A stretch of 64,000 nucleotides of DNA from Endomychus coccineus (Eukaryota; Arthropoda; Insecta; Coleoptera; Endomychidae). The DNA lies in contig OY294067.1 in the NCBI GenBank assembly GCA_958510875.1, positions 198,521,401 through 198,585,400 on the forward strand, written 5' to 3'. The notes beneath the pieces were generated by a model. That model saw only the letters and a program-made list of their open reading frames with translations, was not told the DNA's origin and ran no database searches. Below are positions 4,801 to 60,500 of the stretch, in pieces (within the stretch, counting starts at the first letter, position 1; the number at the start of each line of letters is the position of its first letter). Made by a program: the position numbers and the translations under genes.

Positions 4801-5838
4801 TTTGATATATTTAATTCCCACTCGTTATATTCTCAAATGCCATTCAAAAAAGCTATCACGCCTCAAAATGTAAATAGTATATATAAATATTTAGATGAAT
4901 GCGAAAGTTATATCCATAATCTGAAAATTGACAACATCCCTTTTTATATGACCCAAATGAAAAACAGGTTTCATAGGTCTTCTAGTGTGTATAGAAAGCC
5001 TAAAACTTCTGTATAGAGAATTTGTGGAAAACAACATTCTGAAATTTATTACAACATATAAGCTTTCGCAAGACCATTTAGAAATATATTTTAGTGCAGT
5101 AAGGTCCAAAGGGGGTTGTAATAATGACCCTACTGCACGACAGTTTGAAAGTATTTTAAAAAAATTATTAGTTCACACGGAAATAAAAGGCATAGAAACT
5201 TCCAATGCAGTATCCATAGACTCCACTAAAATATTATGTTGCTCTTCCTCAACACGGACAAATTGTGGAGCAGAACTACAAGAATCTGAGGAGTTTCAGC
5301 AACTTGTCTCAGACATATCAAATATACATTTTGTCAATTCCCCAGCATGGCATTTAACTAGTCTGGTATCTGATGTTGTCGGGTATATAGCAGGCTTTGT
5401 TGAACGTAGTCTTAAAAACTTTATTACCTGCGAATTTTGTCAGTCACTGTCAGGAGATGAGGAGTGCCATTCCCTTTTGCAAGTGAGGAAAACTTTTGAG
5501 AAACCGATTAAAGCTTCAAAATTTGTTATAGATATATGTAGAATCTGTGAAAAATGTTGAGAGTGTTTATGTTAAATACGAATATGTTTTCAAAAAAAAT
5601 TTTCTTAGATATACTAATAATTAAAGTCAAAAAAAATTTGTCACGCAACGTGGTTGATGCATTGGGTGATCATATAGATGAAATGGGCCCACTTGATATC
5701 CACTGTATGGATATGATAACATTAATATGTGAAAAATATCTCACAGTACGAATACATCATGAGACAAAGAAAATTACTGCCACGGAATATAAAGTCCGCA
5801 GTGTATTAACAAAGCAAGTGCTATTTTCACATCAATGA
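1884..5838 (+). pseudogene. P-element/THAP9-like transposase, broken
   Basis: This is a decayed cut-and-paste transposase of the P-element superfamily, read in pieces on the + strand. The first piece (from 1884) opens with MGKYCIVC, the C-x2-C of a THAP zinc finger. The second (about 2345-2562) gives the rest of THAP: a Trp, LVCSDHF (the Cys-x2-His) and the GATPAF ending. Basic, coiled-coil-like sequence follows at 3410-3670. The catalytic core starts near 3818 after a TTTTCAG acceptor-like site; it contains LVLDEM and TFDGAPSN, which fit the RNase H-type acidic residues. A GTP-binding-region-like stretch (DMCHMLKLVRN) follows near 4495. The C-terminal hallmark SQDHLEIYFSAVRSKGG sits at 5066-5118 with NDPTARQF just after. 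The frame changes near 4450, 4655, 5000 and 5550 cannot be normal splicing, so I call it a pseudogene. GT/AG-like sites (for example AAAAGGTAAAA near 2658) suggest the ancestor had introns. I did not find matching element ends. Confidence 0.88.
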
Positions 5839-43813: not shown

Positions 43814-44361
43814 CTACCCCCTCATCAGTCCGGTGTATTCTATGAATTTCAGTAGCCTGATATAGGGGATACTACTAATTTCCTCGGGTGTAATCTTATC
43901 GTCTTCGAGGTACGTCCGACGACCTACCGTGTATGCCGTGCACTCACACAGCACATGCATAGGTGTCTCATCTTCCACGCCGCAACCCCTACACGTGGGG
44001 TAATCTACCAGTCCCATCGTGTAGAGGTGTTTGTTGCATGGGGCGTGTCCGGTCAGGAATGCAACAAGATTCCGTATTTCTTGTCTGCTGAACGTCAGCA
44101 GATTTTTTGCTCGTTGCTGCTGGAGATCTATCATCAGTCGCTTGGAGTGCGACATGCGGAGCAGTTCTCCCCAGTAGGCACGGTACTCAATCTCGAGCCA
44201 TTTTTGGAGTACAGATTTCGCTGTGGCATTATAAATGCCACAGGTTGGCTTTGGTCCAATCAGTGGTTCTTCCGCCCCCGCTTTAGCGAGTGGACGGCAG
44301 TTTCTGTCCCTTCTCGTTTGGTTTCTTTAGACTCCCAAACGAGTGTTACTCTATTGGGGTT
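43814..44361 (-). pseudogene. LINE ORF2, C-terminal part (3' of the insertion)
   Basis: Continuing the LINE frame from 57531, the minus strand reads NRVTLVWES, which corresponds to the third RNase H motif block, although the usual VPGH is lost. A stop and frame change follow near 44270. The next frame reads EEPLIGPKPTCGIYN, QKWLEIEYRAYW and SRQEIRNLVAFLTGHAPCN. It ends with the zinc-binding CRGCGVEDETPMHVLCEC (C-x2-C-x8-H-x4-C) and stops at 43814. The remaining 180 bp form the 3' UTR. Confidence 0.85.
44356..44361. repeat. 6-bp target-site duplication of the viral element, left copy
   Basis: GGGGTT lies immediately before the AG of the left inverted repeat and recurs at 57525-57530 immediately after the final CT. 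Six bases is the duplication length known for Polinton/Maverick integration. Confidence 0.88.
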
Positions 44362-44514
44362 AGTAGATGTGCTATGACAGTTCGGGCTCAAAATCGACCT
44401 TTTTTGCATGTAAATCTCCATAAGGAAATCTAAGGTTCATTTTACCGAGAACTGACCATCCCAAGGTCATCCACAATCACGCATGCGCAGTCTTGTCGAT
44501 GGGAGGGGTAGGTA

Positions 44515-44755
44515 GTCTATGGTTCTATGAACTAGTCATCTGTCTATAGTTCCCTCTAACTATGGTTCTGGAAGTCTGTCATCTGTCTATGGTTCTTCCC
44601 TAACTATGGTCTCATGAAGTCGGTGAACTAGTCATCTGTGTATGGTTCAACCCTAACTATTGCCCGGTGGAGTCTGTGAACTAATCATCTGTGTATGGTT
44701 CTTCCCTAACAATGATCGGGTGAAGTCAGTGAACCACTCATCTGTGTACTCACAT
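44515..44755. repeat. subterminal tandem repeat of the left inverted repeat
   Basis: About four units of roughly 60 bp share CTATGGTTC, CCCTAACTATGG and GTGAACTAGTCATCTGTGTA. The mirror copy is at 57132-57370. Such subterminal arrays in mobile elements are often protein-binding sites; that is inference here. Confidence 0.75.
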
Positions 44756-44778
44756 TCTACTCAAATGATTTTTTTGTC

Positions 44779-44850
44779 TACACACACCGAGATTCGAACC
44801 CGGGAAATAAACTCCAAAGTTAGGCGGCTTAACCGCGGAGGATTTGAAAT
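44779..44850 (-). other. tRNA-like segment 1a (B box)
   Basis: Minus-strand sequence includes GCGGTTAAGCCGCC, TAACTTTGGAGTTTA and a good T arm, CCGGGTTCGAATCTCGG (five pairs, one of them G-T). The acceptor stem is not preserved, so it is tRNA-like rather than a tRNA gene. It reads outward towards the element end. Confidence 0.6.
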
Positions 44851-44887
44851 AATTTAATCTAGTATACAAACAATTCTACTGAAAATG

Positions 44888-44958
44888 AAATATTTTTTCT
44901 ACACACACCGAGATTCGAACCTGGGAAATAAACTCTAAAGTTAGGCGGCTTAACCGCG
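44888..44958 (-). other. tRNA-like segment 1b (tandem duplicate of 1a)
   Basis: Nearly identical to 44779-44850; the T arm differs by one base (CCCAGGTTCGAATCTCGG). The right inverted repeat has only one copy of this unit, so the duplication arose after or during transposition in one arm. Confidence 0.6.
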
Positions 44959-45018
44959 GAGGATTTGAAACAATTTAATCTAGTATACAAACACTTCTAC
45001 TGAAAATGAAATATTTTT

Positions 45019-45090
45019 CTACTTACGGGAATCGAACCCGAGAAATGAAATCCAAAGCCAGCTCTTTTACCGCTCAGCTATGGAGGAATT
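45019..45090 (-). other. tRNA-like segment 2 (A and B boxes)
   Basis: Minus-strand TAGCTGAGCGGTAAAAGAGC matches a tRNA D arm/A box (stem AGCT/AGCT). It is followed by CTTTGGATTTC and a T arm CGGGTTCGATTCCCG at standard spacing. The anticodon and acceptor stems pair poorly. It has the two internal elements needed for RNA polymerase III initiation. The mirror copy is at 56921-56989. Confidence 0.65.
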
Positions 45091-47192
45091 GAGAACAAGC
45101 GATTTTAATGTTGTAGATATAACCGCGGGGTATCCGGTCTAAGTGATGAGTGCGAGTATATTGCAGTCTATATGATGCAGGTAATTTGTTTTTACATGAC
45201 GTCAGTCATGCAGGTATCTGAACATGCGGGTGACGAAGTGTCGGAGGCTACAGCGAGCTATGGAATGTGAGGCTGCTTCTTCATAGCGTCAGTCCTAGGG
45301 TTTTGAAATAGTGTTGTTTGTACATGTCGTCAGTCACGTGATTTTTGAAAGAGACCGGGGCTTCATCGAGGTATCATGGGAGGGCTGCTGCTCCTTCATC
45401 GGAGTGGGTGTATAGATGGAATGTTATACACTATGGAAATGATATCTTCTGCATTTCTCAAACGCGATGTTCATAAGGAAATTACTTTCAAGACGTTTAT
45501 TCAAGCTGTCTGTACCTTACTTGATTGCTATATTACCAAATGCGATTTCAATCATCTTAAACATATAAATATATGGATATTATTTTTAGTATACAAAATG
45601 GAGTTGGGGAACTTCAATGAGGTATGGAATGTGAGGTTATACAGATTGTTTATGTATGACGTCAGTCATGTGAATTTGAATGAAGCTGGCGCGAGGTGCG
45701 GTCTCCAACGAGACAGGTGTGTATGTGAGGATATACAGAGTGTGCAGGTATAATGATGTCTATCACGCAGGTCTTCAGCGAGGTATCTACCTTGCAGGAG
45801 TCTTCAATAAAATGTGGGGTTGTTTGTACATGCCGTTAGTCGCAGGGGTTTTGTCTGAGTTATAATGATATCGGTCGCGGTGCATCGGCTGCTCCACAAG
45901 TCTTCAATAAGGGGTCATAACATCTAACATGCGATAGTTTACAAAAATGCTGCTTCTCATAATAGCGATATTATGAAGCGTTTGCAGAAATAACTATTGA
46001 ATCATCTAAGGACTTTTTGCTTGATTAGTACTAGCGAGTACAATATTCGTTATAATATTATAAGTATCCATCATTAGCTTACTTGTGTGTGATAAGGTTG
46101 TGCTGAATCATCTCCAAGAGCAATGTATTCAACTTGGAATTATCGTAATGATGCGCGATCCTTCAATGTTAAAGTAGTTTCATAAGTTATCCGAAAGTAA
46201 TATGAATATATAAAATGTTTTTCCAAAATTAGTTCCGAAGTAAACATAATATGCTATAATATTATATTCATTCATGTATGTTACATAAATTATCCCATAT
46301 AAATCAAATAAGTTTATGCTAAATTTGTGGCAGGTTGAACAATATCCACTATCATATTCTGCGGTAGAGCTACAGCTGGTTCGAGTGATAAGGAAGTTAC
46401 GCCGATCACCTTCAAAAACGCAATGAGAATACTTTATTTTAAATCAAACATGTAGTATGTATATATATTCGAATCATATTGATTGTAAATCGCATAATAT
46501 GATCCGAAATCCAGCTGATGCTGGTGGAAATATTGTTAATAATTAATAACGTAGTACCCTATAAGCGCTGTAAACGTTATATGATAAGATTTGCGACGAA
46601 TTCGGTAATTCGAGGTATACAATATATAGGTGCGGGAGGGTTGGAGCCCAATACCTATACAGAATGTAGACGAAGCGGTGCCACGCATCACGATGATTAT
46701 TCGAACTGTCTGTACAGCTCGATTGCTATATAACAAAATACATTTTTAATCATCTTAAACATATAGATGTGCTAATATAATTTTTCGGTATGCAAAAATA
46801 TACTAATAAAACATTTTCATCGACACACATTTCTTCATAGGAACAGACAGACAGACGGACAGTTAGCTTTTATAAAATTCAATCAATTTCAATGGAAACA
46901 TATATACGGTTGAGTTTTATAGAGATCGAACTCATTTCCTCAACCACCCAAGAGGTAGAACTATGATGGTTGAATGAGGAATAGATGAGGATAATAATAA
47001 TAATCATATGAATATCTTCATAAGCGCTAATCTATATGACATTCAAGCACATGCTTCATAAAAGTCTGAACATTGAGTAGAGCTATAGTATCTTCATAAG
47101 CGATCATTATCAACATTCAGACACTTGTTTAGCACGTGATTCAACAGCCTGTGACGTCATCATCGTTTACGAACTATGATGGTTCGATGAGG

Positions 47193-47976
47193 ACTCAAAC
47201 ATTGAACAGATGAATCAGCAGGTGGTTTGAGTAATGGAGCGATCAAAAATCTTTGAGGTTAAATGTCTGCTGTAGAAATTACCCCACTATTATAACCTTT
47301 TTATTTGAGAATATCAATATCTCCCATGTAACGGTTTATTGCCTAAAGCTATTTTGTATGCAACATTGTTATCATTTGCGAGCCTACGAGAAATAATATG
47401 TGTGTTGGTCGGGGTTAAATGAATATGTTTGACTATTATTACCTGTAGAGACTCATTTGAGATTCTTCAAGTTTGAGATTGATAACCCACATGAAGAAAG
47501 AAGCTTCAACGATTTGATAGGTTATTTATCATTTTCATATTCTCTATTCTGAATGTGACAACTTTATCGGCTTCAACACTCGAGATAAGAGAGAATATTT
47601 ACCGCAAACTATCTTATAACCACTACTACATATTATAATAATTGACAAGATAACATAATAACCTGAATCACTTTTTCGAGGAATATTATAATATACAAGT
47701 AATAAAACAAAAGTATATTTATATTTATCAATTAGATAGTAACACGAATTTTTTGTTTCTAACTCTGAAGCGATATTTATAATTTAGATTACAATCCTGA
47801 TGGGTTGATCCAAGGGACTGTACTTTACCAAACGGCTCGTTCATTATCGTGATGTCTTGCGGGAAAGTGAGAGAAATAAAATACCAAAAATAAAAATAAT
47901 AACATTTATTTAGAAAAATACATTTTGATAGTACATCATTTAGAATTAAAATAATAACATTATGATTCATGGTTCT
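47193..47976. other. non-coding interior between left inverted repeat and capsid gene
   Basis: AT-rich, with no convincing gene. An 80-codon minus-strand frame (47728-47970) starts just past the capsid-like stop but has no known motif. AATAAA-like signals for the minus-strand genes (TTTATT at several positions from 47690 to 47910) make this the likely 3' end of the gene row. Confidence 0.5.
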
Positions 47977-49119
47977 TCACACTAAACTCCGAACTGATCC
48001 TGTAATTGGTGAATACTCCATTATACGATCGTTAATGATGATGCAATAAGCCCTTGTGTTTTTGGGGAAATTCAGGAAACTTTCCATCTCTAGTTTGACG
48101 TCAACTGGTGATGACTTTATAGCATCGTTTTGTTTTGAACAGTCAATCACAAAAATTGCTCTATTCTTGAATGCTATATAATCTAACATGGGTTCGCTTA
48201 TTATCTTATTTGAAAATGATTTCTGGAAATCATAGTACATCTGGTATGCTTCCACGTATTGCTGTTCGGTGAAATTCAATTCCATTGCTTCATATGGATA
48301 ACATTCTGAATTCAAGTATAATTTTACATTTAGCAAGTTTATATTATCGAAATATGCACTGTGCTTAACAGGATTATTTTTTCGATCAGTTTGGAAAGCT
48401 AGAATCACATATCTGGGACGTTTCAAATTCATTGATGTTTTAACAGCCCAAATGTCGCGAGTGCTCTCCTTCATCAACGGATTTTCATGCAGATCCCAAC
48501 TACGGAATGGAATCAAAATAGGTTTCTCAGCACTCAAATTCTCCAACATTTGAAATTCAACCTGATCACTTGGAAACACAAGTCGCACTTTTAATGCTAA
48601 CGTCTTCACATTTATTTTAGCCGTTTTCGTACCTGTGCTATTAGTATAGCAATCGTTATCGGTTCGAGACCTTATCAAGCGCAGCTTATGTTTTCCACTC
48701 AAAACTTTGTTATAGTCAATAAATAGGCCTGGTAGAAAATTCAACGGTATCCATAAATTGATTTTATTATTGTAGACTGAACTCAATGCATCCTTAAATG
48801 ACCATCCAGAAATAGCTAGAGGTATAGATTCATGTTTGGCATATGTTAGATAAGCTCTGATGGTGCTGACAATACCAGGATCACGTACTTTGTCTATCTC
48901 TTCTCCATTCAATTCATAACTGATATATTTGAAGAGAAACGCTCCGAAATTATTCGTTAGTTCACATTCACCATCAACACTTGTTTCTGGCTGGAATTCT
49001 GCCTCGATGAATAAAGCAGACGAGGCCAAATCTACCAACACATCTTGTTGATTGATTAATATCTCAATTTCATCGCTGTTGCCAAAAGATGTTGTGTGGG
49101 GATAGTAGGTATGAGTTTC
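47977..49119 (-). CDS. double-jelly-roll major-capsid-like protein
   Basis: The longest intact frame of the element; the first ATG is at 49041, giving 354 residues. The coding frame is open 26 codons further up, to a stop at 49120-49122. That extra part (SFGNSDEIEILINQQDVL) matches the conserved N-terminus seen in the fossil copy at 8817, so the true start has been lost or shifted. The protein matches the insect family annotated as double jelly roll-like: an NQQD motif leads into the first strand, FLFKYISYELNG follows, FDNINLLNVKLYLNSECYPY lies in the second half, and the C-terminus holds RAYCIIINDRIMEYSPITG. It would form the hexagonal units of an icosahedral shell. It is the last gene of the row. 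Confidence 0.8.
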   Translation of the reverse strand, partial: ETHTYYPHTTSFGNSDEIEILINQQDVLVDLASSALFIEAEFQPETSVDGECELTNNFGAFLFKYISYELNGEEIDKVRDPGIVSTIRAYLTYAKHESIPLAISGWSFKDALSSVYNNKINLWIPLNFLPGLFIDYNKVLSGKHKLRLIRSRTDNDCYTNSTGTKTAKINVKTLALKVRLVFPSDQVEFQMLENLSAEKPILIPFRSWDLHENPLMKESTRDIWAVKTSMNLKRPRYVILAFQTDRKNNPVKHSAYFDNINLLNVKLYLNSECYPYEAMELNFTEQQYVEAYQMYYDFQKSFSNKIISEPMLDYIAFKNRAIFVIDCSKQNDAIKSSPVDVKLEMESFLNFPKNTRAYCIIINDRIMEYSPITGSVRSLV

Positions 49120-49122
49120 TTA

Positions 49123-49443
49123 CCGGATGATGTATTCAATGAAGTTTGGCTCGTTGAATATTCGAAGTTTTTCCTACATTGTAACCAAGGGACTTCAAAA
49201 AATTTATATTTTCCAATGATAGTGATGCAGAAGCAACCTTCTCCCTCTTCAATGACAGTGATGCAGAAGCAACCTTCTCCCTCGAGCTCGTTGTAGATAA
49301 TGACTGATGACCACTATGGAGATGTCTTTTATTGCTAAAATCCAAACTCATGTTCTCAAGTGATGGCTACTGCAACAACAACCTTCTCAGTTGAATTCCT
49401 TTCATATAATGAGTGGTGGTGAGTATTGGATTATTATTTATTG
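49123..49443. other. gap between capsid and penton-like genes with a short duplication
   Basis: A roughly 42-bp phrase (GTGATGCAGAAGCAACCTTCTCCCTC) occurs twice in tandem near 49223-49284, with a weaker trace near 49367-49391. The sequence upstream of the capsid frame here carries the defect that removed its start codon. Confidence 0.55.
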
Positions 49444-50202
49444 TTAGAAGCCATAATCCCTAGCGATCTTTTTTAATTCCAATCGTATAATAATTTCTTC
49501 TCCACGAAAATTTACCGGTTCCCAATTCTGATCTAAAATACTCAGCGTGATGTTATCGAAAGATGTCTTGCTGATGACCGGTAGATAAATAAGATTCTTC
49601 GGCTCTATATCAATGAAAAACATAGGTGGTACAAGAGGTGAGAACTCATATATCGTATGAGCTATCTTATTGTTATAATATGCTCCTGCGGTTAAGTTAC
49701 ACTCCACTCTAATAGTTTGAACTTTGATTATGTTTATAGGTCGATCAGATACGTGTAGTTCACGAGATGTCAATTTCTTTTTGCTGAATCCCAACAGTTC
49801 GCTTATACTATCTTTAGGAATAAAATTCACTTCAAAATCACTCTTCAGCTCTGTGTGTAGAGTGTTGTTGTTAGATTTTATTGATAATTTCCGGTCACGC
49901 TCTTCTTGCTCCACTCCTATCCCACAAACTGTACTTTGTATGAAATCTTCGATGTCTGTCAACTCGTAGGACCCCGTAGGTATAGTAACTACTTTTTCCT
50001 CACCCTTCACATCTTCATAATAAAATTTATTAAGACCTTCTTCAATGTTCGGGATGCTATTGTACGTATGCAAACCAACAAGTGCGATAGAATAATATGA
50101 ATGAGGATCTGGTTCTATAGGTGGGTGAAAATCTACAGATAAGCAGCAGCTCTTACCCGTGATAGTGAACGTCTGAGACATGATTGATGAAAACTTCATC
50201 AA
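49444..50202 (-). CDS. minor capsid (penton-like) protein
   Basis: 252 residues, intact. The N-terminus contains FHPPIEPDPHSYYSIALVG and LHTYNSIPNI, followed by VTIPTGSYELTDIEDFIQ. The middle has ELLGFSKKKL and the C-terminal third has PPMFFIDIEPKNLIYLPV. This pattern is shared by proteins that accompany the double-jelly-roll gene in insect elements. By position and size it is the best candidate for the single-jelly-roll vertex protein, although I cannot confirm the fold from sequence alone. An in-frame ATG eight codons in (MSQTF) is an alternative start. Confidence 0.7.
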   Translation of the reverse strand: MMKFSSIMSQTFTITGKSCCLSVDFHPPIEPDPHSYYSIALVGLHTYNSIPNIEEGLNKFYYEDVKGEEKVVTIPTGSYELTDIEDFIQSTVCGIGVEQEERDRKLSIKSNNNTLHTELKSDFEVNFIPKDSISELLGFSKKKLTSRELHVSDRPINIIKVQTIRVECNLTAGAYYNNKIAHTIYEFSPLVPPMFFIDIEPKNLIYLPVISKTSFDNITLSILDQNWEPVNFRGEEIIIRLELKKIARDYGF

Positions 50203-50749
50203 AAATCTATTTACATACTAATAAAATGCAATGTTAGTCGACCACAACTGAAGAGTCAGAGAGGAATACCAAACATAACAGGCTACAATTACATGAAATA
50301 TCGTTTAGACGGCAAGCTTTATCGAATGAATTGATACCCTGAATCTCCTTAACCGTTCTTCTAATTTTGCACCTGGTATTGATAACCAGGAATATGAAGT
50401 TCAAACGGGAGCTTGTTTATAAGCGTATTGAGAACAACTTCTCCCACGCAAGCATCCATACAGACTGATGAGAATTCAAGATTGCACTGTTATTTGAAGA
50501 GGGGAGATAGAAAGACCAAAGATCTCAAAACAATTCTTTATTAATTTTCTCAATACAAAAAATGTTAGTATAACCTTAAAAATATTTTTAAAATATCACA
50601 ATCTTGGCTCTTGATTCATCGTCTTAGTCGTATTGCATATTCCTACCCCTTCCATCTATATTGAAGTCCTTTTATGTATGTTCGACGCTGGTAAAAGTTC
50701 TTCCTTCTCTGCAAAACTTGTTCTCTACTCATCTTATCAATGTGGAAAT
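50203..50749. other. spacer between penton-like and fibre-like genes
   Basis: This 547-bp AT-rich spacer has no recognised gene. It is the largest gap in an otherwise compact gene row, so it may hold the promoter for the penton-like and capsid genes, or a lost small gene. Confidence 0.4.
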
Positions 50750-51406
50750 CTAGTGTAGAATTAATTTTTTAAGTATATTCACAGGATTTGAAGTTATACG
50801 CTTCACAGAGGCCAGCTTTGTTGTTGTTGTGGATGATGAGGGTCTCTTCTTAGAAGGTCCCATATATGTCATCCGTCGTTCTAACGCCTCCACTTTACTA
50901 GTGATGTTATTTAAACGCATGTTCACACTGTTAAATGTGTTATTGATCTCTTTCAATTCATTTCTGTTTTCCCTCACACTATGACTGATTGTTTCATACT
51001 CTGATTTTATGTAGATTCCCATTCCATTATATTTATTCTGAATGTCCATCAGATGTTTATCAATGTTGAGAATAACCTTTTCATTCGTTAATTTATGTTC
51101 ATCCAGATCCTTGTTGATATCTTTGATCAAATTATCAACCCTAACATTGAAGGTATCTTTAAGACTGGTTTCCGTATTCAGATTCAGTTTGTGTGTTAAT
51201 TTATCAACATACACTCTATTTGCAATATCTCCATCATCATTCGGTGATTTTACGTTGCACAATCTACGATTTTTCATATCATAACTCCCATCGCTCGTTA
51301 GGAATAATCCTTGTCCGTGAACTTGTTTGAAATTATAATTAAATACATTTGTATCATATATCCACATGGAAGAGGAGGCTCTGCCAAACTTATCCATTGA
51401 AACCAT
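50750..51406 (-). CDS. fibre-like coiled-coil protein
   Basis: 218 residues. Residues about 37-70 contain SDGSYDMKNRRLCNV, then a Pro-Asn-Asp-Asp-Gly stretch and NRVYVDKL. This resembles the repeat at which phage and viral fibre proteins pass from shaft into a trimeric coiled coil (usual form M-x-x-x-I-x-N-V ... A-x-x-x-Y-V-D). About 100 residues of charged heptad-like helix follow, with a basic Ser/Thr-rich C-terminus (KKRPSSSTTTTKL). The start lies 17 bp inside the 3' end of the DUF8207-like gene, which points to tight co-expression. It is a candidate receptor-binding spike; a scaffold role is also possible. Confidence 0.6.
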   Translation of the reverse strand: MVSMDKFGRASSSMWIYDTNVFNYNFKQVHGQGLFLTSDGSYDMKNRRLCNVKSPNDDGDIANRVYVDKLTHKLNLNTETSLKDTFNVRVDNLIKDINKDLDEHKLTNEKVILNIDKHLMDIQNKYNGMGIYIKSEYETISHSVRENRNELKEINNTFNSVNMRLNNITSKVEALERRMTYMGPSKKRPSSSTTTTKLASVKRITSNPVNILKKLILH

Positions 51407-52454
51407 CTTTATAACTGTGATGAATTTGTCTTACACCTGGTTTTTGTTCAATTACCCCTGCCTCTATCAATTCTTCTATTATAGAGATTATCTCGTTGTG
51501 ATGATTATTGTTACCGGCATGCGAGGATGCAACACGAAGTCTCAGTCTATCCACAATTTCGTTAACGTCATCCCAATAAACATATTCGATAGGTTTCTCG
51601 TTATATTCAAGCATATCATTTTGGATATATGCACTTTCAGTGTATGTTTTGGCTCTGGGTCTTTTCATGGAAGTAATCAAAGGTTTCAGTACATGTTTGT
51701 ATTTTACTGTGTATCTTATTCGATCAGCTGGATCGTTATAACGTCTATGGGCACTAATCATTTCCATCATTTGACTGTAATTTTTCTCATCTTCCGCAGT
51801 GTAAGTATCAGGTAGAACATCTCTGTAGAATATCAAATTATACAGTCCTGTGGTACCCTTGAACGGAGTACCCTTGATAATTATATTACTCTCACTATCA
51901 ATTTCTATAGGTTGATTAGCCATGAACCATTTGTCTAAAGTTGAATTATATTGCAAACCCATTTTATCATCGTATCTCTTGACATCATCATCCAATAGGA
52001 ATCCTTCCAAGTAATAACGTGCTAATGTGGAGTATTGTTGCAGAAACTCCTCTGTAGCCGCTGCATTATCTTTCTTATGTTTTCTGAATTCTTCACGAAT
52101 CTGATCGACAGTAGGTTTGGGTGTGAACACATCCTCCTCAGTATCTTGGGGGTTATATACGAATTCTTCACCTTCAGTTACAATATCTGGGATTGGTATG
52201 TTCTCCATTTGTGTTGCTGTAGAAACAATACTTTTAGGTTTAACCAACGAATTTCGTTTGATTATTTCAGAATTTCTCGCAATTTCCTCTAGGGGTTTAG
52301 ATACATTCCTGGACGTATTATTTAGAATCTCATCATTTTCAGCTTTACCCAATTTCACAGCCATATATTTTTTCCTCACAACGTTTGCTAACTCCCAAAT
52401 CTTTTTCTTCAATTGTTGTTCTTCTTTTAGCATGTTACTCACACCCACGTCCAT
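51390..52454 (-). CDS. DUF8207-like structural protein
   Basis: 354 residues, intact. The N-terminal half (1-120) is charged and probably disordered, with a coiled-coil start (LKEEQQLKKKIWELANVV). The conserved part is at about 150-260: YYLEGFLLDDD, a line with MANQPIEIDSES, then FKGTTGLYNLIFYRD and a YSQMMEMISAHRRYN helix. It matches the insect and hydra proteins annotated DUF8207, which commonly lie beside double-jelly-roll genes. No enzymatic motif is visible, so a virion or assembly role is inferred from context. It starts 44 bp after the ATPase stop and overlaps the fibre-like gene by 17 bp. Confidence 0.75.
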   Translation of the reverse strand: MDVGVSNMLKEEQQLKKKIWELANVVRKKYMAVKLGKAENDEILNNTSRNVSKPLEEIARNSEIIKRNSLVKPKSIVSTATQMENIPIPDIVTEGEEFVYNPQDTEEDVFTPKPTVDQIREEFRKHKKDNAAATEEFLQQYSTLARYYLEGFLLDDDVKRYDDKMGLQYNSTLDKWFMANQPIEIDSESNIIIKGTPFKGTTGLYNLIFYRDVLPDTYTAEDEKNYSQMMEMISAHRRYNDPADRIRYTVKYKHVLKPLITSMKRPRAKTYTESAYIQNDMLEYNEKPIEYVYWDDVNEIVDRLRLRVASSHAGNNNHHNEIISIIEELIEAGVIEQKPGVRQIHHSYKDGFNG

Positions 52455-52497
52455 GCTGAGCGGGTTGTCTATTTCAAATGGAGGTATATATACATGT

Positions 52498-53050
52498 TAG
52501 ATGTATATATATCTATCAAACCCTTTGCGATAACGTCCTTTGTTCATATCACAGTCTTTGTTTATCATAAGGAATCCATATTTATCTTAACAACATACGC
52601 TACATATCTCTTTGAATTTCTCGAGTGACATGTCGGTACTTACATGATCGGTAAATATATGTTTCAAATTGAGTTCATCCTGTTTGAAAATAATCAAGCA
52701 ATTGGCATTGTCGCGCAATCCATGTTTTGGACATTTAGCAAAAGACTGACAAAGATAGAAACTATCAATTGAGTTGTGTCTCCCTCTTGGTGTAAAGACT
52801 TTGAATATATGTACACGTTTTCAAATTTCAGGCCGTTAGCATCTAACAATAGAGATAACATCACATTTGTTTTCCCACAATTACTTGGACCACAGATTAT
52901 TGTTCGTAGAGTATTAGGCAGTAAAGAGCTGTGGCGTTGTGGTTGTTCAACATTCTCATTGCTTGACCCTAAGTTCATAATACTCAACGAGTCTTTTTGC
53001 TTAACAATCTTCATCATGCCTGAAGGCGAATCGAAATCATACTGAAACAT
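52498..53050 (-). pseudogene. genome-packaging ATPase, internally deleted
   Basis: The N-terminal part (53050-52790) is intact, with a Walker A loop GPSNCGKTN at residues 54-62 and FENVYIYSKSLHQ at about residues 75-87, as in A32/FtsK-type packaging ATPases of Polinton-like viruses. The next expected stretch, which holds Walker B, is absent. The sequence jumps, in another frame, to DSFYLCQSFAKCPKHGLRDN and IIFKQDE, then FKEICSVCC, an in-frame stop, and DKYGFLMINKD to a final stop at 52498. One deletion with a frameshift, plus a point stop, thus removes the catalytic centre. The intact gene would pump DNA into the shell. Confidence 0.85.
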
Positions 53051-53160
53051 ATGTTAGTAAGCATTTGTTTATATACTAGTTGATGATGTTATATTGTGTA
53101 TGTCTGATCACGCGGTTAGGTATTTCTACGCTTCTGTCAAAATTAGGTGTCAAATACATG

Positions 53161-53960
53161 TTAAATAGGTCTGAATGCTGAAACACGTGTCTGAAACACG
53201 TGTCTGAATGCTGAAACACGTGTCTGAATGCTGAAACACGTGTCTGAAACACGTGTCTCAATGCTGAAACACGTGTCTGAATGCTGAAACACGTGTCTGA
53301 ATGCTGGAACACGTGTCTGAATGTTGAAACACGTGTCTGAATGTTGAAACACGTGTCTGAAACACGTGTCTGAATACTGAAACACGTGTCTGAATGTTGA
53401 AACACGTGTCTGAAGGCTGAAACACGTGTCTGAAACACGTGTCTGAATGCTGAAACACGTGTCTGAATGCTGAAACACGTGTCTGAAACACGTGTCTGAA
53501 TGCTGAAACACGTGTCTGAATACTGAAACACGTGTCTGAATGTTGAAACACGTGTCTGAATGTTGAAACACGTGTCTGAATGCTGAAACACGTGTCTGAA
53601 ACACGTGTCTGAATGCTGAAACACGTGTCTGAATGCTGAAACACGTGTCTGAATGCTGAAACACGTGTCTGAATGCTGAAACACGTGTCCGAATGTTGAA
53701 ACACGTGTCTGAAACACGTGTCTGAATACTGAAACACGTGTCTGAATGCTGAAACACGTGTCTGAAACACGTGTCTGAATGCTAAAACACCTGTCTGAAT
53801 GCTGAAACACGTGTCTGAAACACGTGTCTGAATGCTGAAACACGTGTCTGAATGCTGAAACACGTGTCTGAATGTTGAAACACGTGTCTGAAACACGTGT
53901 CTGAATGTTGAAACACGTGTCTGAATGTTGAATCACGTGTTGAATCATGCGATAAAACAT
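53161..53960. repeat. CACGTG minisatellite (20-bp and 13-bp units)
   Basis: About 45 units are built from two modules: CTGAATGCTGAAACACGTGT (20 bp, with A/T/G variants in the middle) and a shortened CTGAAACACGTGT (13 bp). Nearly every unit contains the palindrome CACGTG. The array lies directly upstream of the ATPase start, at the head of the whole minus-strand gene row. All minus-strand frames are open through it because the units lack stop codons on that strand. That makes long frames of little meaning. It resembles in layout the palindrome-repeat enhancers/origins of large insect viruses, though the sequence is different. Confidence 0.92.
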
Positions 53961-54510
53961 GTGCATGAATGTATTACAACCATTATGATTATTCACATTT
54001 TATCCCTCATCAGCTTATCATAGTTAAGTTATATGATTAGTGATTGATTGATGTTTCATTTACATTTAGATATATTTGCAATATTATTATTATTATCGAT
54101 ATACACTTATCGTTCTATTTATTAGAATATATTTTATATTTCCCGATTAATATTTGAGTATAAGCATATTTAACATTTAGCTATAAGAATAATAATTATT
54201 GTAAGCATAATTAGTGATTGATTGATGTTTCATTTACATTTATATGTAGCTGCAATATTATTATTGATATCTATTCACATGTAGTTACAATATATTCATT
54301 TCTCATTATTAGAATCTAATAGGAATTTATTTTTCCCTCGATTAGTTTGAATAAAAGCACATTCAACACTTAGTTATTGGAATAATATTCATTGTAACTG
54401 TTGTGTTGAAGAATGATATATTTTCGATAATGAAATGATTATGTAAACCCGTGAAAAAAAAATGTGTTTATCATTATAACTTTTACCCGACTGTTTGTCT
54501 ACATGTTTTT
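53961..54510. other. AT-rich stretch with a direct repeat
   Basis: TTAGTGATTGATTGATGTTTCATTTACATTTA occurs at about 54036 and 54211, giving a two-unit repeat of about 175 bp that continues through TGCAATATTATTATT and TTAGAAT. No gene is seen. Confidence 0.55.
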
Positions 54511-54583
54511 AACTAGTGGTGTAATTGGTGAACACCCTGGTTCGAAAATCTAGAAATGCGGGTTCGAATTCCGCCTATGGTTG
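54511..54583 (+). other. tRNA-like segment 3 (interior, single copy)
   Basis: TGGTGTAATTGGTGAACACC is a good D arm with an A-box match. It is followed by a CTGG/CTAG anticodon-type stem and a strong T arm GCGGGTTCGAATTCCGC. Acceptor pairing is partial (about five of seven, counting a G-T pair). It is closer to a real tRNA than the inverted-repeat copies, with a Gln-like D arm, but the anticodon loop is not canonical. Confidence 0.6.
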
Positions 54584-56920
54584 AATCTTTCACGTTTATT
54601 CATCTTTATAATCCTATGTTAAATCATCTAAGTTATCTTCATGATCCAGAAAATTTAATTCTATATCTCTTAAGTTACATACACGATAGTGGCCAATAAG
54701 GCAAAGAAACTTCAAACTTATATATATATGAACGCTTTAACGTATGAAGTTTGTAAAAGTTGTGCTCGTGAAGGAAGATAGTAAAGATTGCTAATGGAGA
54801 TATTTATATAATTATTATTGGTATTTTATTCCTCATCAGCCTATCATAGTTTGTAAACGATGATGACGTCACAGGCTGTTGAATCACCTGCTAAACAAGT
54901 GTCTGAATGTTGATAATGATCGCTTATGAAGATACTATAGCTCTACTCAATGTAGACTTTTATGAAGCATGTGCTTGAATGTCATATAGATTAGCGCTTA
55001 TGAAGATATTCATATGATTATTATTATTATTATCCTCATCTATTCCTCATCCAACCATCATAGTTCTACCTCTTGGGTGGTTGAGGAAATGAGTTCGATC
55101 TCTATAAAACTCCCCCGTATATATGTTTCCATTGAAATTGATTGAATTTTATAAAAGCTAACTGTCCGTCTGTCTGTCTGTTCCTATGAAGAAATGTGTG
55201 TCGATGAAAATGTTTTATTAGTGTATTTTTGCATACTGAAAAAATTATATTAGCACATCTGTATGTTTAAGATGATTAAAAATGTATTTTGTTATATAGC
55301 AATCGAGCTGTACAGACAGTTCGAATAATCATCGTGATGCGTGGCACCGCTTCGTCTACATTCTGTATAGGTATTGGGCTCCAACCCTCCCGCACCTATA
55401 TATTGTATACCTCGAATTACCGAATTCGTCGCAAATCTTATTATATAACGTTTACAGCGCTTATAGGGTACTACGTTAATAATTATTAACAATATTTCCA
55501 CCACCAGCAGCTATATTTCGGATCATATTATGCGATTTACAATCAATATGATTCGAATATATATACATACTACATGTTTGATTTAAAATAAAGTATTCTC
55601 ATTGCGTTTTTGAAGGTGATCGGCGTAACTTCCTTATCACTCGAACCAGCTGTAGCTCTATCTCAAAATATGATAGTGGATATTGTTCAACCTGCCACAA
55701 ATTTAGCATAAGCTTATTTGATTTATATCGGGTAATTTATGTAACATACATGAATGAATATAATATTATAGCGAATTATGTTTACTTCGGAACTAATTTT
55801 GGAAAAACATTTTATATATTCATATTACTTTCAGATAACTTATGAAACTACTTTAACATTGAAGGATCGCGCATCATTACGATAATTCCAAGTTAAATAC
55901 ATTGCTCTTGGAGATGATTTAGCACAACCTTATCACACACAAGTAAGCTAATAATGCATACTTATAATATCATGACGAATATTGTACTCGCTAGTACTAA
56001 TCAAGCAAAAAGTCCTTAGATGATTTAATAGTTATTTCTGCAAACGCTTCATAATATCGCTATTATGAGAAGCAGCATTTTTGTAAACTATCGCATGTTA
56101 GATGTTATGACCCCTTATTGAAGACTTGTGGAGCAGCCGATGCACCGCGACCGATATCATTATAACTCAGACAAAACCCCTGCGACTAACGGCATGTACA
56201 AACAACCCAACATTTTATTGAAGACTCCTGCAAGGTAGATACCTCGCTGAAGACCTGCGTGATAGACATCATTATACCTGCACACTCTGTATATCCTCAC
56301 ATACACACCGCACCTCGCGCCAGCTTCATTCAAATTCACATGATGACGTCATACATAAACGATCTGTATAACCTCACATTCCATACGTCATTGAAGTTCC
56401 CCAACTCCATTTTGTATACTAAAAATAATATCCATATATCTATATGTTTAAGATGATTGAAATCGCATTTGGTAATATAGCAATCAAGTAAGGTACAGAC
56501 AGCTTGAATAAACGTCTTGAAAGTAATTTCCTTATAAACATCGCGTTTGAGAAATGCAGAAGATATCATTTCCATACTGTATAACATTCCATCTATACAC
56601 CCACTCCGATGGAGGAGCAGCAGCCCTCCCATGATACCTCGATGAAGCCCCGGTCTCTTTCAAAAATCACGTGACTGACGACATGTACAAACAACACTAT
56701 TTCAAAACCCTAGGACTGACGCTATGAAGAAGCAGCCCCACATTCCATACCTCGCTGTAGGCTCCGACACTTCGTCACCCGCATGTTCAGATACCTGCAT
56801 GACTGACGTCATGTAAAAACAAATTACCTGCATCATATAGACTGCAATATACTCGCACTTATCACTCAGACCGGATACCCCGCGGTTATATCTACAACAT
56901 TAAAATCGCTTGTTCTCAAT

Positions 56921-56989
56921 TCCTCCATAGCTGAGCGGTTAAAGAGCTGGCTTTGGATTTCATTTCTCGGGTTCGATTCCCGTAAGTAG
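56921..56989 (+). other. tRNA-like segment 2, right copy
   Basis: Mirror of 45019-45090, with TAGCTGAGCGGTTAAAGAGC and GGGTTCGATTCCCG. The D-loop here has GGTTAAA, the standard form, and is one base longer than the left copy. This version is therefore probably nearer the original. Confidence 0.65.
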
Positions 56990-57043
56990 AAAAATATTTC
57001 ATTTCCAGTAGAAGTGTTTGTATACTAGATTAAATTGTTTCAA

Positions 57044-57110
57044 ATCCTCAGCGGTTAAGCCGCCTAACTTTAGAGTTCATTTCCCGGGTTCGAATCTCGG
57101 TGTGTGTAGA
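57044..57110 (+). other. tRNA-like segment 1, right copy (single)
   Basis: Mirror of 44779-44850, with CAGCGGTTAAGCCGCC and CCCGGGTTCGAATCTCGG. It occurs once here against twice on the left. Confidence 0.6.
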
Positions 57111-57131
57111 CAAAAAAATCATTTCAGTAGA

Positions 57132-57370
57132 ATGTGAGTACACAGATGAGTAGTTCACTGACTTCACCCGACCATTGTTAGGGAAGAACCATACACAGAT
57201 GATTAGTTCACAGACTCCACCGGGCCATAGTTAGGGTTGAACCATACACAGATGACTAGTTCACCGACTTCATCAGACCATAGTTAGGGAAGAACCATAG
57301 ACAGATGACAGACTTCCAGAACCATAGTTAGAGGGAACCATAGACAGATGACTAGTTCATAGAACCATAG
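57132..57370. repeat. subterminal tandem repeat of the right inverted repeat
   Basis: Mirror of 44515-44755, with about four 60-bp units sharing TACACAGATGA and CCATAGTTAGGG. Confidence 0.75.
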
Positions 57371-57524
57371 ACTACCTACCCCCCCATCGACATGACTGCG
57401 CATGCGTGATTGTGGATCACCTTGGGATGGTCAGTTTTCGGTAAAATGAACCTTAGATTTCCTTATGGAGATTTACATGCAAAAAAGGTCGATTTTGAGC
57501 CCGAACTGTCATAGCACATCTACT

Positions 57525-57530
57525 GGGGTT
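57525..57530. repeat. 6-bp target-site duplication of the viral element, right copy
   Basis: GGGGTT follows CACATCTACT directly and equals 44356-44361. Confidence 0.88.
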
Positions 57531-60500
57531 CATCACTAGTGCCGCTAGTTCTCTGACGCAATCAAGCACACATTGTGAGGTGATTGTGTATGACTCCATT
57601 GCCTTGAGCACTGTCAGGTTGCTCACTATGATTGTGATTTGTCTATTCTCATAGGCTCTCTCCCTCATAATTTGAGCACATGATGTAATTGCAACTATTC
57701 TCGCTTGGAATTCTGTCGCAAAAGGCTCTAGAATCAAAGAAATTCTTTCTCCTTGGTCTGTTTTCTCGAATGTTCCAGCACCCGTACTTTTTTCCGTCTT
57801 GGTGCTCTTGGTAAGCCAAATGGAGTCCCCTGATATCATATGAGGACTGCTCCCAGCGTTCTCCCGCCCATTCAATGTTCCAATCATGGGAGGCACGAAA
57901 GTGCTGTGAACCTTGATCCTATCGGATCTCATCCCCAATGGCCCAGGTGATCCAAGCAATCCAAGGATGCTTCGGCATTTTTGATCAGCCTTTCCTTGGC
58001 CGATGAGATCGAAGCGATACGCTCCTCTCATGGCCTCTGTCTGAACGGCGAGGTGCAGTGGTTCCAACCCCAACAGCTTCTCCATAGCAGCCGTTGGTGT
58101 GGTCGACATTGAGCCTGTTACTCCTAAGCATGCCAGCCTCTGAACTCTGTTCAGTGAATGCTGGGATGCTTTAGTTTTTGTCTTTGGCCACCACACAATG
58201 GCGGCGTATGTTACAATGGGTCTCACTATGGTTGTGTACACCCAGTGTACCATCAGTGGAGTCAGTCCCCAGGTTCTCCCGACTGTACGACGACAGGTCC
58301 ACAGGGCCCTTATCGCTTTGTTAGCGGTTTTATCCAGATGCTTCCCAAAGATCAGTCTTTTATCTAGGCTTACCCCGAGGAACTTGACCGTGTCTGTCAT
58401 CTGTATATTTTTTCCATACAAAACTGAATCTTGTATGTTTCCAATGTCCCTTCTCTTTGTGAAGGGTACAATGGTTATTTTCGAAGGATTCACTTTGAGT
58501 CCTCCCTTGTTGCACCATTTTTCCACGGTGTACTGCATGCTGAATCAGAGATGCTATTGTGCTCCCAAACTTCCCGTGTAGTATTATGACGATGTCATCC
58601 GCATTTCCGATTACGAAGAATATTTTGCTCTCAAGGATTATCAGAAGTTCGTCCACCACCAGACTCCACAGCAGAGGTGACAGTTCACCTCCCTGCGGAC
58701 ATCATCCAGCGACCCGCACCTTCTTTTCGAACTCATTGAGAGTTCCTATGACTGTCCTGCTTCGGAGCATGTTATGGATTCATGTGCAGAGCAGATTCTC
58801 CACCCTCGCTCTCGCATTGCTCGGACAATTGATTCGAATGAGGTGTTGTCAAAAGCCCCCTCTATGTCCAGAAAGCTCGCTAGTGCAATTTCTTTGCAAT
58901 CCAGCGATTTTTCTGCTCTCTGTATTAACTCGTATACCGCCATTTCACAGGAATGCCCGGTCTGGTAAGCATACTGATTGCGATGTAGGGGATTTCTCAT
59001 AAGAGTTTCATCTCTAACATGCCTGTCGATCAGTTTCTCTAGAGTTTCCAGGAGAAACGAAGTTACACTGATCGGACGGAAAGATTCTGGCTGGAAGTAA
59101 GAGTCTCGCCCTGGCTCTGGTATGAATACCACCCTTGCCGCTTTCCACTCTTCCGGTATGTAGCTCAGTACCAGGCTGGTTCTCAGCATTTCTTACAGGA
59201 TAGGAGCCAGTATATCGATTGCCTGCTGCAGTAAAGCTGGCAGTATTCTATCGATTCCTGGCGACTTGTATGGTTTAAATGAATTTATTGCCCATTTGAT
59301 TTTTGATTTATTGATAATACTCGCAGCCAGAGCCCAGTTTTCCTTCCGCCATTTTTTTTTAGGTATGGGGTCTCCTAGTTCTGTTAAACTACAGTTGTTT
59401 TCGCACCATGATCCAGTGAAGTGAGTCTGGAGCAACAGCTCCAGCGTCTCTTCTTCTGTTTTGGTGTATCCTCCTTGTGGTTTTTCACAGGAGCCCACTT
59501 TCTGTCGTGGTCCAGTTGCTAGTACTTTGTGGAGTCTAGCGTAGCTGGGCATATCCTCTATGCCCTGGCAATACTTCCTCCACGAGGTCCTTCGCGCTTT
59601 CTTGATAGCGTTGTTATACGCAGTCAGTGCCATACGGTATTCATCCCAATAGGTGTCGATTCGCTTGGCTTTGTTGAACAGTCTTCTCACCGTCCTTCTC
59701 ATGGCGGACAGTTCTGCATTCCACCAACATGCAGAGCTTCTCTGTCTTTTCGCCTTCAGGGGGCATGAGGCTTCAAAGGCTGTTATTATGGCTGAGGTAA
59801 CAGTTGTTACCATTGCATTTAACTCTGGCACTGTAGGTGCCTTCGTTGAGCAGTCCCCAAGTGCCTTTTGTAGTTTTCCACGATAGGAGTCCCACTTGGT
59901 GGCCCTTGGGTTTCTGTACTCTGTAGGCAGTGCCTCTGACGATCCAATTGTGTATCGTATGTACATGTGGTCGGATAAATTTGGTTCCTCCGCCACATGC
60001 CAGTTACGCACTAGGTCGTTCATACGCCCGGTACATACCGTGATATCGATGACCTCCCTTCTCACATTTGTCACAAAGGTCGGTTTGTTGCCCTGATTGC
60101 ACACCTGTAGGTTGTGCGCCATCAGGAAATCCAGCAATGCTTCACCTCATCGTTTGTTGATGTCTTTGCTCCCTCACACTGTGTCGTGTGCATTGGCATC
60201 ACATCCCAATAGGGCTTGGGATTTCCAGGTTCTGAGATACTGAGTTCGTATTTCTTGGGGTGGCGGTGCTCCCGTCTGATCATAGGGTAGGTATGCTGAT
60301 GCCAACAGGATTCTTTGCTCCCTACCTTCTATTCCTTATTTGAGTCTAATCGTTGTTAGGTCGCGACTGCAGTGCTCTCACAACGGTAAAACTTTAGCTG
60401 CATCTTTTATTAGTATGCAAGTTCGTGGTTTTTGCTCTGACGGGTCGTGTATGATACGCCCATCAAAGCTACCTAATCTCCCGATTCTTTCCCCATACAC

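What the first reader, a model, noticed from the sequence alone, without database searches (positions are those of the whole stretch)
44362..57524. Complete Polinton-like provirus with exact ends, nested inside a LINE
AG...CT ends, 2.7-2.8-kb inverted repeats and an exact 6-bp duplication (GGGGTT) bound a 13,163-bp unit. The LINE frame reads ...ALVMNP then NRVTLVWES across the site once the insertion is ignored, so the empty site is known to the base. The termini and duplication are read directly; the Polinton assignment rests on known hallmarks plus the capsid and ATPase genes.
Basis: partly seen in the sequence, partly recalled or inferred. Interest (0 to 1): 0.88.

Follow-up and report, generated by a model that had tools for sequence, protein, structure and literature searches.

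The report
Capsid half of a split Polinton
The 13-kb insertion is real and exactly bounded, but it is not a complete virus-like Polinton: it carries only the shell genes, while sister elements with the same ends elsewhere in this beetle-like genome carry the DNA polymerase, so the virus-like genome seems to be split over separate mobile pieces.

Summary
In detail: 44362-57524, AG...CT ends, inverted repeats of 2,838/2,701 bp (97.7% identical), 6-bp duplication GGGGTT, and an open LINE frame across the empty site. The reading "complete provirus" is not supported. The element has capsid (DJR MCP), a putative minor capsid protein, fibre-like coiled coil, DUF8207 protein and a broken packaging ATPase, but no polymerase, no integrase and no recognised protease.

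In the same 906-Mb genome, elements with the same ends fall into two kinds. Of 11 read or nearly read, 5 carry the capsid set, 6 carry PolB, none both; all 11 have perfect 6-bp duplications, and repeats of the two kinds interleave in a tree. A second terminal variant is also worn by both kinds. Among scored copies (108 MCP, 38 PolB) the only pair within 20 kb is a polymerase element nested inside a capsid element. Most capsid loci keep a 30-residue integrase stump where a one-piece Polinton here has its integrase.

Best explanation: a bipartite Polinton (capsid segment, polymerase segment, integrase in trans). The split is well supported; its function is inferred. An unseen complete parent is not excluded.

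The parts
44356..44361 (.). target-site duplication, left copy (GGGGTT)
   Evidence: read directly
44362..47199 (+). left terminal inverted repeat, begins AGTAGATG
   Evidence: same ends in 10 other elements
45349..45753 (+). open frame of 134 aa inside the repeat; related frames in repeats of both element kinds; no Pfam match
47977..49119 (-). [quoted passage not shown] N-terminus lost in this copy
   Evidence: PF21738; 420 homologues at E <= 0.001, best named ones in beetles; 405-aa frames in sister copies
49444..50217 (-). putative minor capsid (penton-like) protein
   Evidence: a homologue (about 37% identity) lies next to another MCP family of this genome in 8 of 8 loci (L039-L046); no Pfam match over a cut-off; structure model too weak to use
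50649..50705 (-). possible stump of integrase N-terminus (not significant here, clear in six sister loci)
50750..51430 (-). coiled-coil, fibre-like protein
   Evidence: weak coiled-coil matches, none over a cut-off; homologue in one-piece Polinton L053
51390..52496 (-). protein of PF26634 (DUF8207) family, unknown function
   Evidence: 111 homologues, 107 labelled PF26634, one of them also ATPase (PF04665) and named 'Maverick ATPase'; homologue in L053
52587..53053 (-). packaging ATPase, broken into two frames (169-nt internal deletion relative to three relatives)
53169..53945 (.). minisatellite (20-bp based, CTGAAACACGTGTCTGAATG); the same array occurs in some polymerase elements
54000..54823 (.). 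inner spacer; parts of its sequence lie next to the repeats of polymerase elements
54824..57524 (-). right terminal inverted repeat, ends CATCTACT
57525..57530 (.). target-site duplication, right copy (GGGGTT)
57525..60122 (-). host LINE, RT and endonuclease side of the insertion
43814..44361 (-). host LINE, 3' side of the insertion

Best explanation
The element is one (older, damaged) copy of the capsid segment of a split, bipartite Polinton. Shown: in everything typed, capsid genes and polymerase gene of this family lie on separate, separately inserted elements with common ends. Inferred: the polymerase segment supplies protein-primed PolB, which starts replication at the shared ends of both segments; the capsid segment supplies shell and packaging ATPase for both; an integrase supplied in trans, most likely by one-piece Polintons in the same genome, inserts both with 6-bp duplications. 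The capsid segment descends from a one-piece Polinton whose integrase was cut back to a stump. It can change partner by exchanging its terminal ~565 bp: a second terminal variant is shared by near-identical capsid segments and by elements with a quite different PolB.
For: Same ends, two gene sets: nine paired elements scanned with this family's proteins (window + 8 fetched) = 4 capsid, 5 polymerase, 0 both; with the nested pair at C5:104.28 Mb 5 and 6, all 11 with perfect 6-bp duplications. Repeats interleave: (C5:63.67 capsid + C1:146.39 polymerase) support 100/100, (window + C3:88.57 polymerase) 96/99; starred branches force at least 3 label changes. Genome-wide: 108 scored MCP x 38 scored PolB copies give one pair under 20 kb, and that is a polymerase element inserted, with duplication CACTTC, in the DUF8207 gene of a capsid element; 108 MCP x 47 variant-2 PolB give none. 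Second terminal variant: 17 paired spans = 5 capsid-only (12.0-12.7 kb), 1 with two MCPs (36.7 kb), 7 PolB-only (17.2-19.0 kb), 1 longer with PolB (29.7 kb), 3 without a listed gene, 0 with both. Linkage shows where it exists: 12 of 13 INT-PolB pairs of another family lie 447-451 bp apart, 5 INT-MCP pairs 5.3 kb apart; GNAT lies near 26 of 38 variant-1 PolB, 24 of them at 1.2-1.9 kb. L053 holds ATPase-DUF8207-coiled coil-INT-...-PolB within 6 kb. INT stump after the coiled-coil gene in six loci. dN/dS 0.23 MCP, 0.18 variant-1 PolB.
Against: No integrase was found in either segment, so the pair is not self-sufficient as read. Complementation, co-packaging and transcription were not tested. Searches score only the best candidates (MCP 108 of 4,399; PolB 38 of 2,927; ends 40 of 1,116 and 40 of 1,159), so complete elements could have been missed; of 20 unpaired variant-1 ends only 2 have a listed PolB and 4, one of them the same, a GNAT within 15 kb. 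Variant-2 polymerase elements were typed by position only; they could be complete Polintons. Polymerase elements were scanned with this family's capsid proteins, so a diverged capsid gene could be missed, though no other long frame was seen. Close pairs not resolved by sequence: MCPs of the Pfam list 11.6 kb from a variant-1 PolB, 16.5 kb from a variant-2 PolB and 7.6 kb from a GNAT; INT 11.2 kb from a window-family MCP and 13.5 kb from another MCP, 8.3 kb from a GNAT, 19.4 kb from a variant-2 PolB; four GNAT copies 4.4-9.0 kb from a window-family MCP (beyond the expected end of the capsid element). The INT stump was not found in the C5:63.67 Mb capsid element and is not significant in the window. 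dN/dS is higher for the coiled coil (0.59).
Confidence: 0.62

Rival explanations
1. Both kinds are non-autonomous deletion derivatives of an ordinary one-piece Polinton with the same ends that is rare, unsampled or extinct here. They were amplified in trans by it; their genes are open only because the bursts are recent, and they do not serve each other.
For: The integrase stump points to descent from a one-piece element. No integrase in either kind. Two short spans without a listed gene (2.0 and 3.5 kb) with variant-2 ends exist. Only the best candidates were scored.
Against: No element with both MCP and PolB among 11 read or nearly read and 14 typed variant-2 spans. Derivatives would be expected to lose genes at random; here each kind keeps a coherent module, in two terminal variants, with dN/dS 0.18 for variant-1 PolB at pairwise dS up to 0.50.
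Confidence: 0.26
2. The capsid element is a satellite that carries its own shell and exploits unrelated complete Polintons for replication and integration, changing ends to follow the currently active one; the polymerase element is a separate parasite or transposon-like form.
For: The same capsid cassette (96% MCP identity) wears two sets of ends whose polymerases align at only 23% over 188 residues; in young copy L047 the outer end matches variant-2 polymerase elements at 81-94%, all 18 such ends stopping at position 564 of 572, while all 14 typed capsid ends run to 572, and the inner repeat matches variant 1 from position 573.
Against: Variant-1 polymerase elements (five read in full, one nearly) show no capsid gene of this family and no integrase, so they are not complete Polintons either; both polymerase kinds share the same GNAT gene.
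Confidence: 0.1
3. One reading: an ordinary, complete Polinton provirus nested in a LINE.
For: Ends, repeats, duplication, MCP and ATPase.
Against: No PolB and no integrase; broken ATPase and MCP N-terminus.
Confidence: 0.02

Closest known systems
Polintons/Mavericks (Polintoviricetes)
   Same: AG...CT ends, long inverted repeats, 6-bp duplications, DJR capsid protein, packaging ATPase; 134 intact vertebrate Mavericks share inverted repeats, 6-bp duplications and eight conserved genes (seven in one species) on one element (PMC8097293, passages)
   Different: no pPolB, no integrase, no protease seen on this element; polymerase on separate elements with the same ends
Capsid-less Polintons
   Same: Krupovic et al. 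2014 report nine Polintons without MCP that also lack protease and ATPase (PMC4028283, passage): comparable to the polymerase element
   Different: the passage treats them as a transposon-like state; no capsid-only partner with common ends is mentioned in it
Adintoviruses
   Same: PolB homologues include 'PolB [Megastigmus wasp adintovirus]' at 50%
   Different: Drosophila-associated adintovirus 1 is one 14.5-kb contig with PolB, integrase, capsid, protease and FtsK (PMC8363768, passages)
Segmented insect DNA viruses: Bidnaviridae, Vesanto virus, Acheta domesticus segmented densovirus
   Same: genes split over linear pieces; many putative Vesanto segments have similar inverted terminal repeats, three encode PolB-like proteins (PMC8363768, passages)
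   Different: bidna-like or parvoviral viruses, not DJR dsDNA elements; not described there as integrated families with target duplications. AdSDV: start of abstract in a search listing only (PMC10267136)
Polinton-like viruses (PLVs)
   Same: mostly lack pPolB and retroviral integrase (PMC11071308, passages)
   Different: they encode other replication proteins on the same genome; none found here

Membership tests
Polinton/Maverick | AG...CT ends, long inverted repeats, 6-bp target duplication | tested here: met
Polinton/Maverick | DJR major capsid protein | tested here: met
   PF21738 E 4e-56
Polinton/Maverick | packaging ATPase | tested here: met
   present but broken in this copy; sister copy scores Pox_A32 above its cut-off
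Polinton/Maverick | protein-primed PolB on the element | tested here: not met
   no match with two PolB lineages in the window element or the three capsid relatives scanned with it or in L047/L048
Polinton/Maverick | retrovirus-like integrase on the element | tested here: not met
   at most a ~30-residue stump
Polinton/Maverick | adenain-like protease | tested here: inconclusive
   no Pfam match among the element frames scanned; short or diverged proteases not excluded
[quoted passage not shown]
   position and homology next to MCP; model pLDDT 42
Bipartite/multipartite virus | complementary gene sets on separate molecules | tested here: met
   for capsid and polymerase; the integrase is on neither
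Bipartite/multipartite virus | common terminal sequences | tested here: met
Bipartite/multipartite virus | mutual dependence and packaging of all segments | not testable with these tools
   needs expression and particle data
Ordinary non-autonomous transposon | ends shared with an autonomous element that encodes the recombinase | tested here: inconclusive
   no listed integrase within 20 kb of 40 variant-1 ends or inside the spans; integrase list is partial (123 of 4,853 candidates scored)
Ordinary non-autonomous transposon | coding capacity lost or decaying freely | tested here: not met
   104 of 108 scored MCP copies have no stop in the match (best candidates only); dN/dS 0.23
Polinton-like virus | alternative replication protein on the same genome | tested here: not met
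   none among the eight element frames scanned against Pfam; frame list

The most novel reading that the evidence does not exclude
A bipartite double-jelly-roll DNA virus-like genome in an animal: one integrated segment carries only capsid and packaging genes, another only the protein-primed polymerase and an acetyltransferase, integration is supplied in trans, and the capsid segment switches polymerase partner by swapping its terminal half-kilobase. This would be the first multipartite member of the Polinton lineage known to me.
Probability: 0.5. Interest if true: 0.9.

Novelty: new variant of a known kind. Interest (0 to 1): 0.78.

Why it matters
Polintons are treated as self-synthesising one-piece elements, and whether they form particles is open. 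A capsid-only segment still open in about a hundred scored copies, with purifying-type change, is easier to explain if shells are made and package more than their own DNA, so it makes the virus-or-transposon question testable in a living beetle. It would also extend multipartite genomes to the DJR viruses. One published vertebrate mining pipeline starts from co-located integrase and pPolB (PMC8097293, passage) and so cannot see capsid-only segments; similar splits may have been overlooked.

Tried and rejected
Rejected: complete Polinton (no PolB, no integrase). Rejected: a one-off internal deletion in this copy (capsid-only sisters with the same content, polymerase-only sisters with the same ends). 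Rejected: hybrid element at C5:104.28 Mb (a nested insertion with its own duplication). Led nowhere: viral-contig scans with the single MCP and PolB proteins and with the MCP alignment (no relative); the PolB alignment gave one distant contig with PolB, integrase and ATPase (L054). PHROGs gave nothing useful. The minor capsid model was too weak for a fold search. Nine other window frames had no Pfam match at E <= 0.001. One adintovirus paper was not held. Passages of two further papers (PMC6431247; PMC12567637) named no capsid-only Polinton. Searches for a bipartite Polinton in print: (open-licence PMC only); none of the listed titles or abstract starts describes one; not proof of absence. In one search the variant-2 PolB (L055) was in the list but had too few comparable codons and dropped out of the dN/dS count.

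My note after one search gave 6 clean capsid spans; the output shows 5 clean plus one span with two MCPs, as used here.
Full report
1. Observation. The unit 44362-57524 is as described: AGTAGATG...CATCTACT ends flanked by GGGGTT on both sides, inverted repeats of 2,838 and 2,701 bp, 97.7% identical over 2,697 aligned positions, inside a LINE whose minus-strand frame is open across the site once the unit and one GGGGTT are ignored (RT and endonuclease pieces).

2. Content. All recognisable genes lie on the minus strand between the repeats: DJR major capsid protein (PF21738; named homologues mostly in beetles such as Sitophilus, longhorns and Tribolium, then ants), a neighbour that is probably the minor capsid protein (adjacent to MCP in another family too; fold not confirmed), a coiled-coil protein, a DUF8207 protein and a packaging ATPase that is broken in this copy (the relative in L047 matches Pox_A32). 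There is no PolB and no integrase.

3. Relatives. The genome (906 Mb, 129 contigs; the host is inferred to be a beetle from the protein matches) was searched with the first 539 bp: 1,116 candidates, 40 scored, matching at 92-100% over their main stretch. They form ten pairs, the window included: nine elements of 12.2-18.0 kb and one span of 29.1 kb; 20 ends stay unpaired. The nine were scanned with all proteins: the window, C1:176.13, C1:135.03 and C5:63.67 Mb carry the capsid set; C2:81.65, C2:56.68, C1:146.39, C1:174.54 and C3:88.57 Mb carry PolB, three of these five also GNAT. In the five polymerase elements the frames of 120 aa or more are PolB or its pieces, GNAT, a zinc-finger frame or its remnant, minisatellite frames, repeat frames and frames antisense to PolB. 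The 29.1-kb span at C3:96.11 Mb, of which 19.9 kb was read, holds at least two capsid gene sets and no PolB in the part read; it is not counted. PolB of C2:81.65 Mb is an open frame of 1,280 aa with thousands of homologues, named DNA polymerase or uncharacterised in insects where a name is given (7,974 at E <= 0.001 among 7,982 scored, 120 listed); the family B motifs in it (DVNNxYG, YTDTDS) I recognise from memory.

4. Separate mobile units. MCP copies (108 scored of 4,399 candidates) and PolB copies (38 scored of 2,927) give 1 pair under 20 kb and one more at 22 kb. The close pair is a polymerase element, C5:104287240-104306177, with its own duplication CACTTC, sitting in the DUF8207 gene of a capsid element with duplication CATAAT; its PolB body was not fetched but located. 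Eleven of 11 examined variant-1 elements have perfect 6-bp duplications. In the repeat tree the two kinds interleave, with three starred branches, so ends are shared or exchanged rather than inherited in two lines.

5. Second terminal variant. A young capsid copy, C2:32424586-32437133 (99.0% over 2,931 bp of repeat, duplication TCCGTG), begins AGTAGGCAGGGG. Its outer 572 bp found 40 ends (of 1,159 candidates). Pairing gave 17 spans: 5 with one MCP (12.0-12.7 kb), one 36.7-kb span with two MCPs, 7 with PolB (17.2-19.0 kb), one 29.7-kb span with PolB, 3 with no listed gene (12.6, 3.5, 2.0 kb); of 6 single ends 2 had PolB, 2 MCP, 2 none within 20 kb. None had both. This PolB (L055; 47 scored of 540 candidates) is a different lineage: best local match to the variant-1 PolB 23% over 188 residues. 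All 18 ends of PolB-typed elements stop matching at query position 564, all 14 ends of MCP-typed elements run to 572, and the window's repeat resumes at 573 of this copy, at its own position 930: the sign of an exchange of ends. GNAT (150 scored of 283) accompanies both polymerase kinds: 26 of 38 variant-1 PolB within 10 kb, 18 of 47 variant-2 PolB within 12 kb.

6. Controls. Where genes do share an element the same lists show it: of 13 PolB copies of another family with an INT within 20 kb, 12 have it at 447-451 bp and one at 585 bp; 7 INT-MCP pairs of other families lie within 20 kb, five at 5.3 kb, one at 5.05 kb, one at 13.5 kb. L053 shows ATPase, DUF8207, coiled coil, integrase and the C-terminal end of a PolB within 6 kb, with a phospholipase A2-like frame, so one-piece Polintons coexist here. 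Against the 122 listed INT places, the window's MCP family has 1 pair within 20 kb (11.2 kb; 108 copies), variant-1 PolB none (38), the 40 variant-1 ends none. Stray close pairs, not resolved by sequence, are listed under evidence against.

7. Origin. Directly downstream of the coiled-coil gene, where L053 has its integrase, capsid segments keep about 30 residues of the integrase N-terminus. Of eight capsid loci that reach this place, six match by tblastn (55-68% identity over 28-31 residues), the window only at E 0.41, and L019 (C5:63.67 Mb) not at all; a profile of two integrases, run over 4,058 pieces (which did not include L037 and L038), found four loci at E 7e-4 to 1.2e-3 and the window at 0.2, no better than an unrelated frame (translations). 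The capsid segment therefore most likely comes from a one-piece element.

8. Selection and age. Pairwise dN/dS (summed): MCP 0.23 (28 pairs, single pairs 0.05-0.95), minor capsid 0.32 (28, up to 1.63), DUF8207 0.42 (21), coiled coil 0.59 (10), variant-1 PolB 0.18 (10 pairs, dS up to 0.50). The window copy is older than C2:32.42 Mb by repeat divergence (2.3% against 1.0%).

9. Mechanism. Shown: two kinds of element, common ends, same insertion signature, exclusive gene sets in everything typed. Inferred: PolB replicates both via shared ends; capsid and ATPase package both; integrase acts in trans; end exchange re-pairs the capsid segment with another polymerase. Main doubt: a complete parent with these ends may exist outside the scored candidates, and function was not tested.

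10. Known or new. Polinton hallmarks are met at the ends and in the capsid, not in PolB and integrase, so I do not file the element as a Polinton but as a capsid segment of Polinton descent. Capsid-less Polintons are known (PMC4028283, passage); segmented DNA viruses of insects are known (PMC8363768, passages; PMC10267136, listing); a capsid-only Polinton partner was not found in my searches.

Noticed in passing
own genome: The genome carries many open copies of several Polinton families: dozens of MCP copies with one identical score (393.9 bits) and no stop, PolB frames up to 1,764 aa, and integrase frames of about 314-330 aa; this points to recent or ongoing activity of several families.
   Followed up: partly
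C2:74072630-74085267, C3:148690842-148694292, C4:212729-214688: Spans with variant-2 ends but no listed gene; the last two are only 3.5 and 2.0 kb long, like miniature derivatives.
   Followed up: no
L053:1-345 (C2:10.58 Mb): Phospholipase A2-like frame (PF08398) in a one-piece Polinton.
   Followed up: no
L018:1504-1929 and 149 further scored copies: A GNAT-type acetyltransferase gene kept in both polymerase element kinds, 92-100% identical to the query.
   Followed up: partly
window 3763-5016: P-element-like transposase pieces (PF12017, PF21787, PF21788).
   Followed up: no
P0125: A protein filed as 'DNA polymerase [Rickettsia endosymbiont of Ceutorhynchus assimilis]' is 70% identical to the variant-1 PolB; probably beetle Polinton sequence binned with the symbiont.
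   Followed up: no
window 45349-45753: A frame inside the inverted repeat, with related frames in repeats of both element kinds; it may be a real repeat-borne gene.
   Followed up: no
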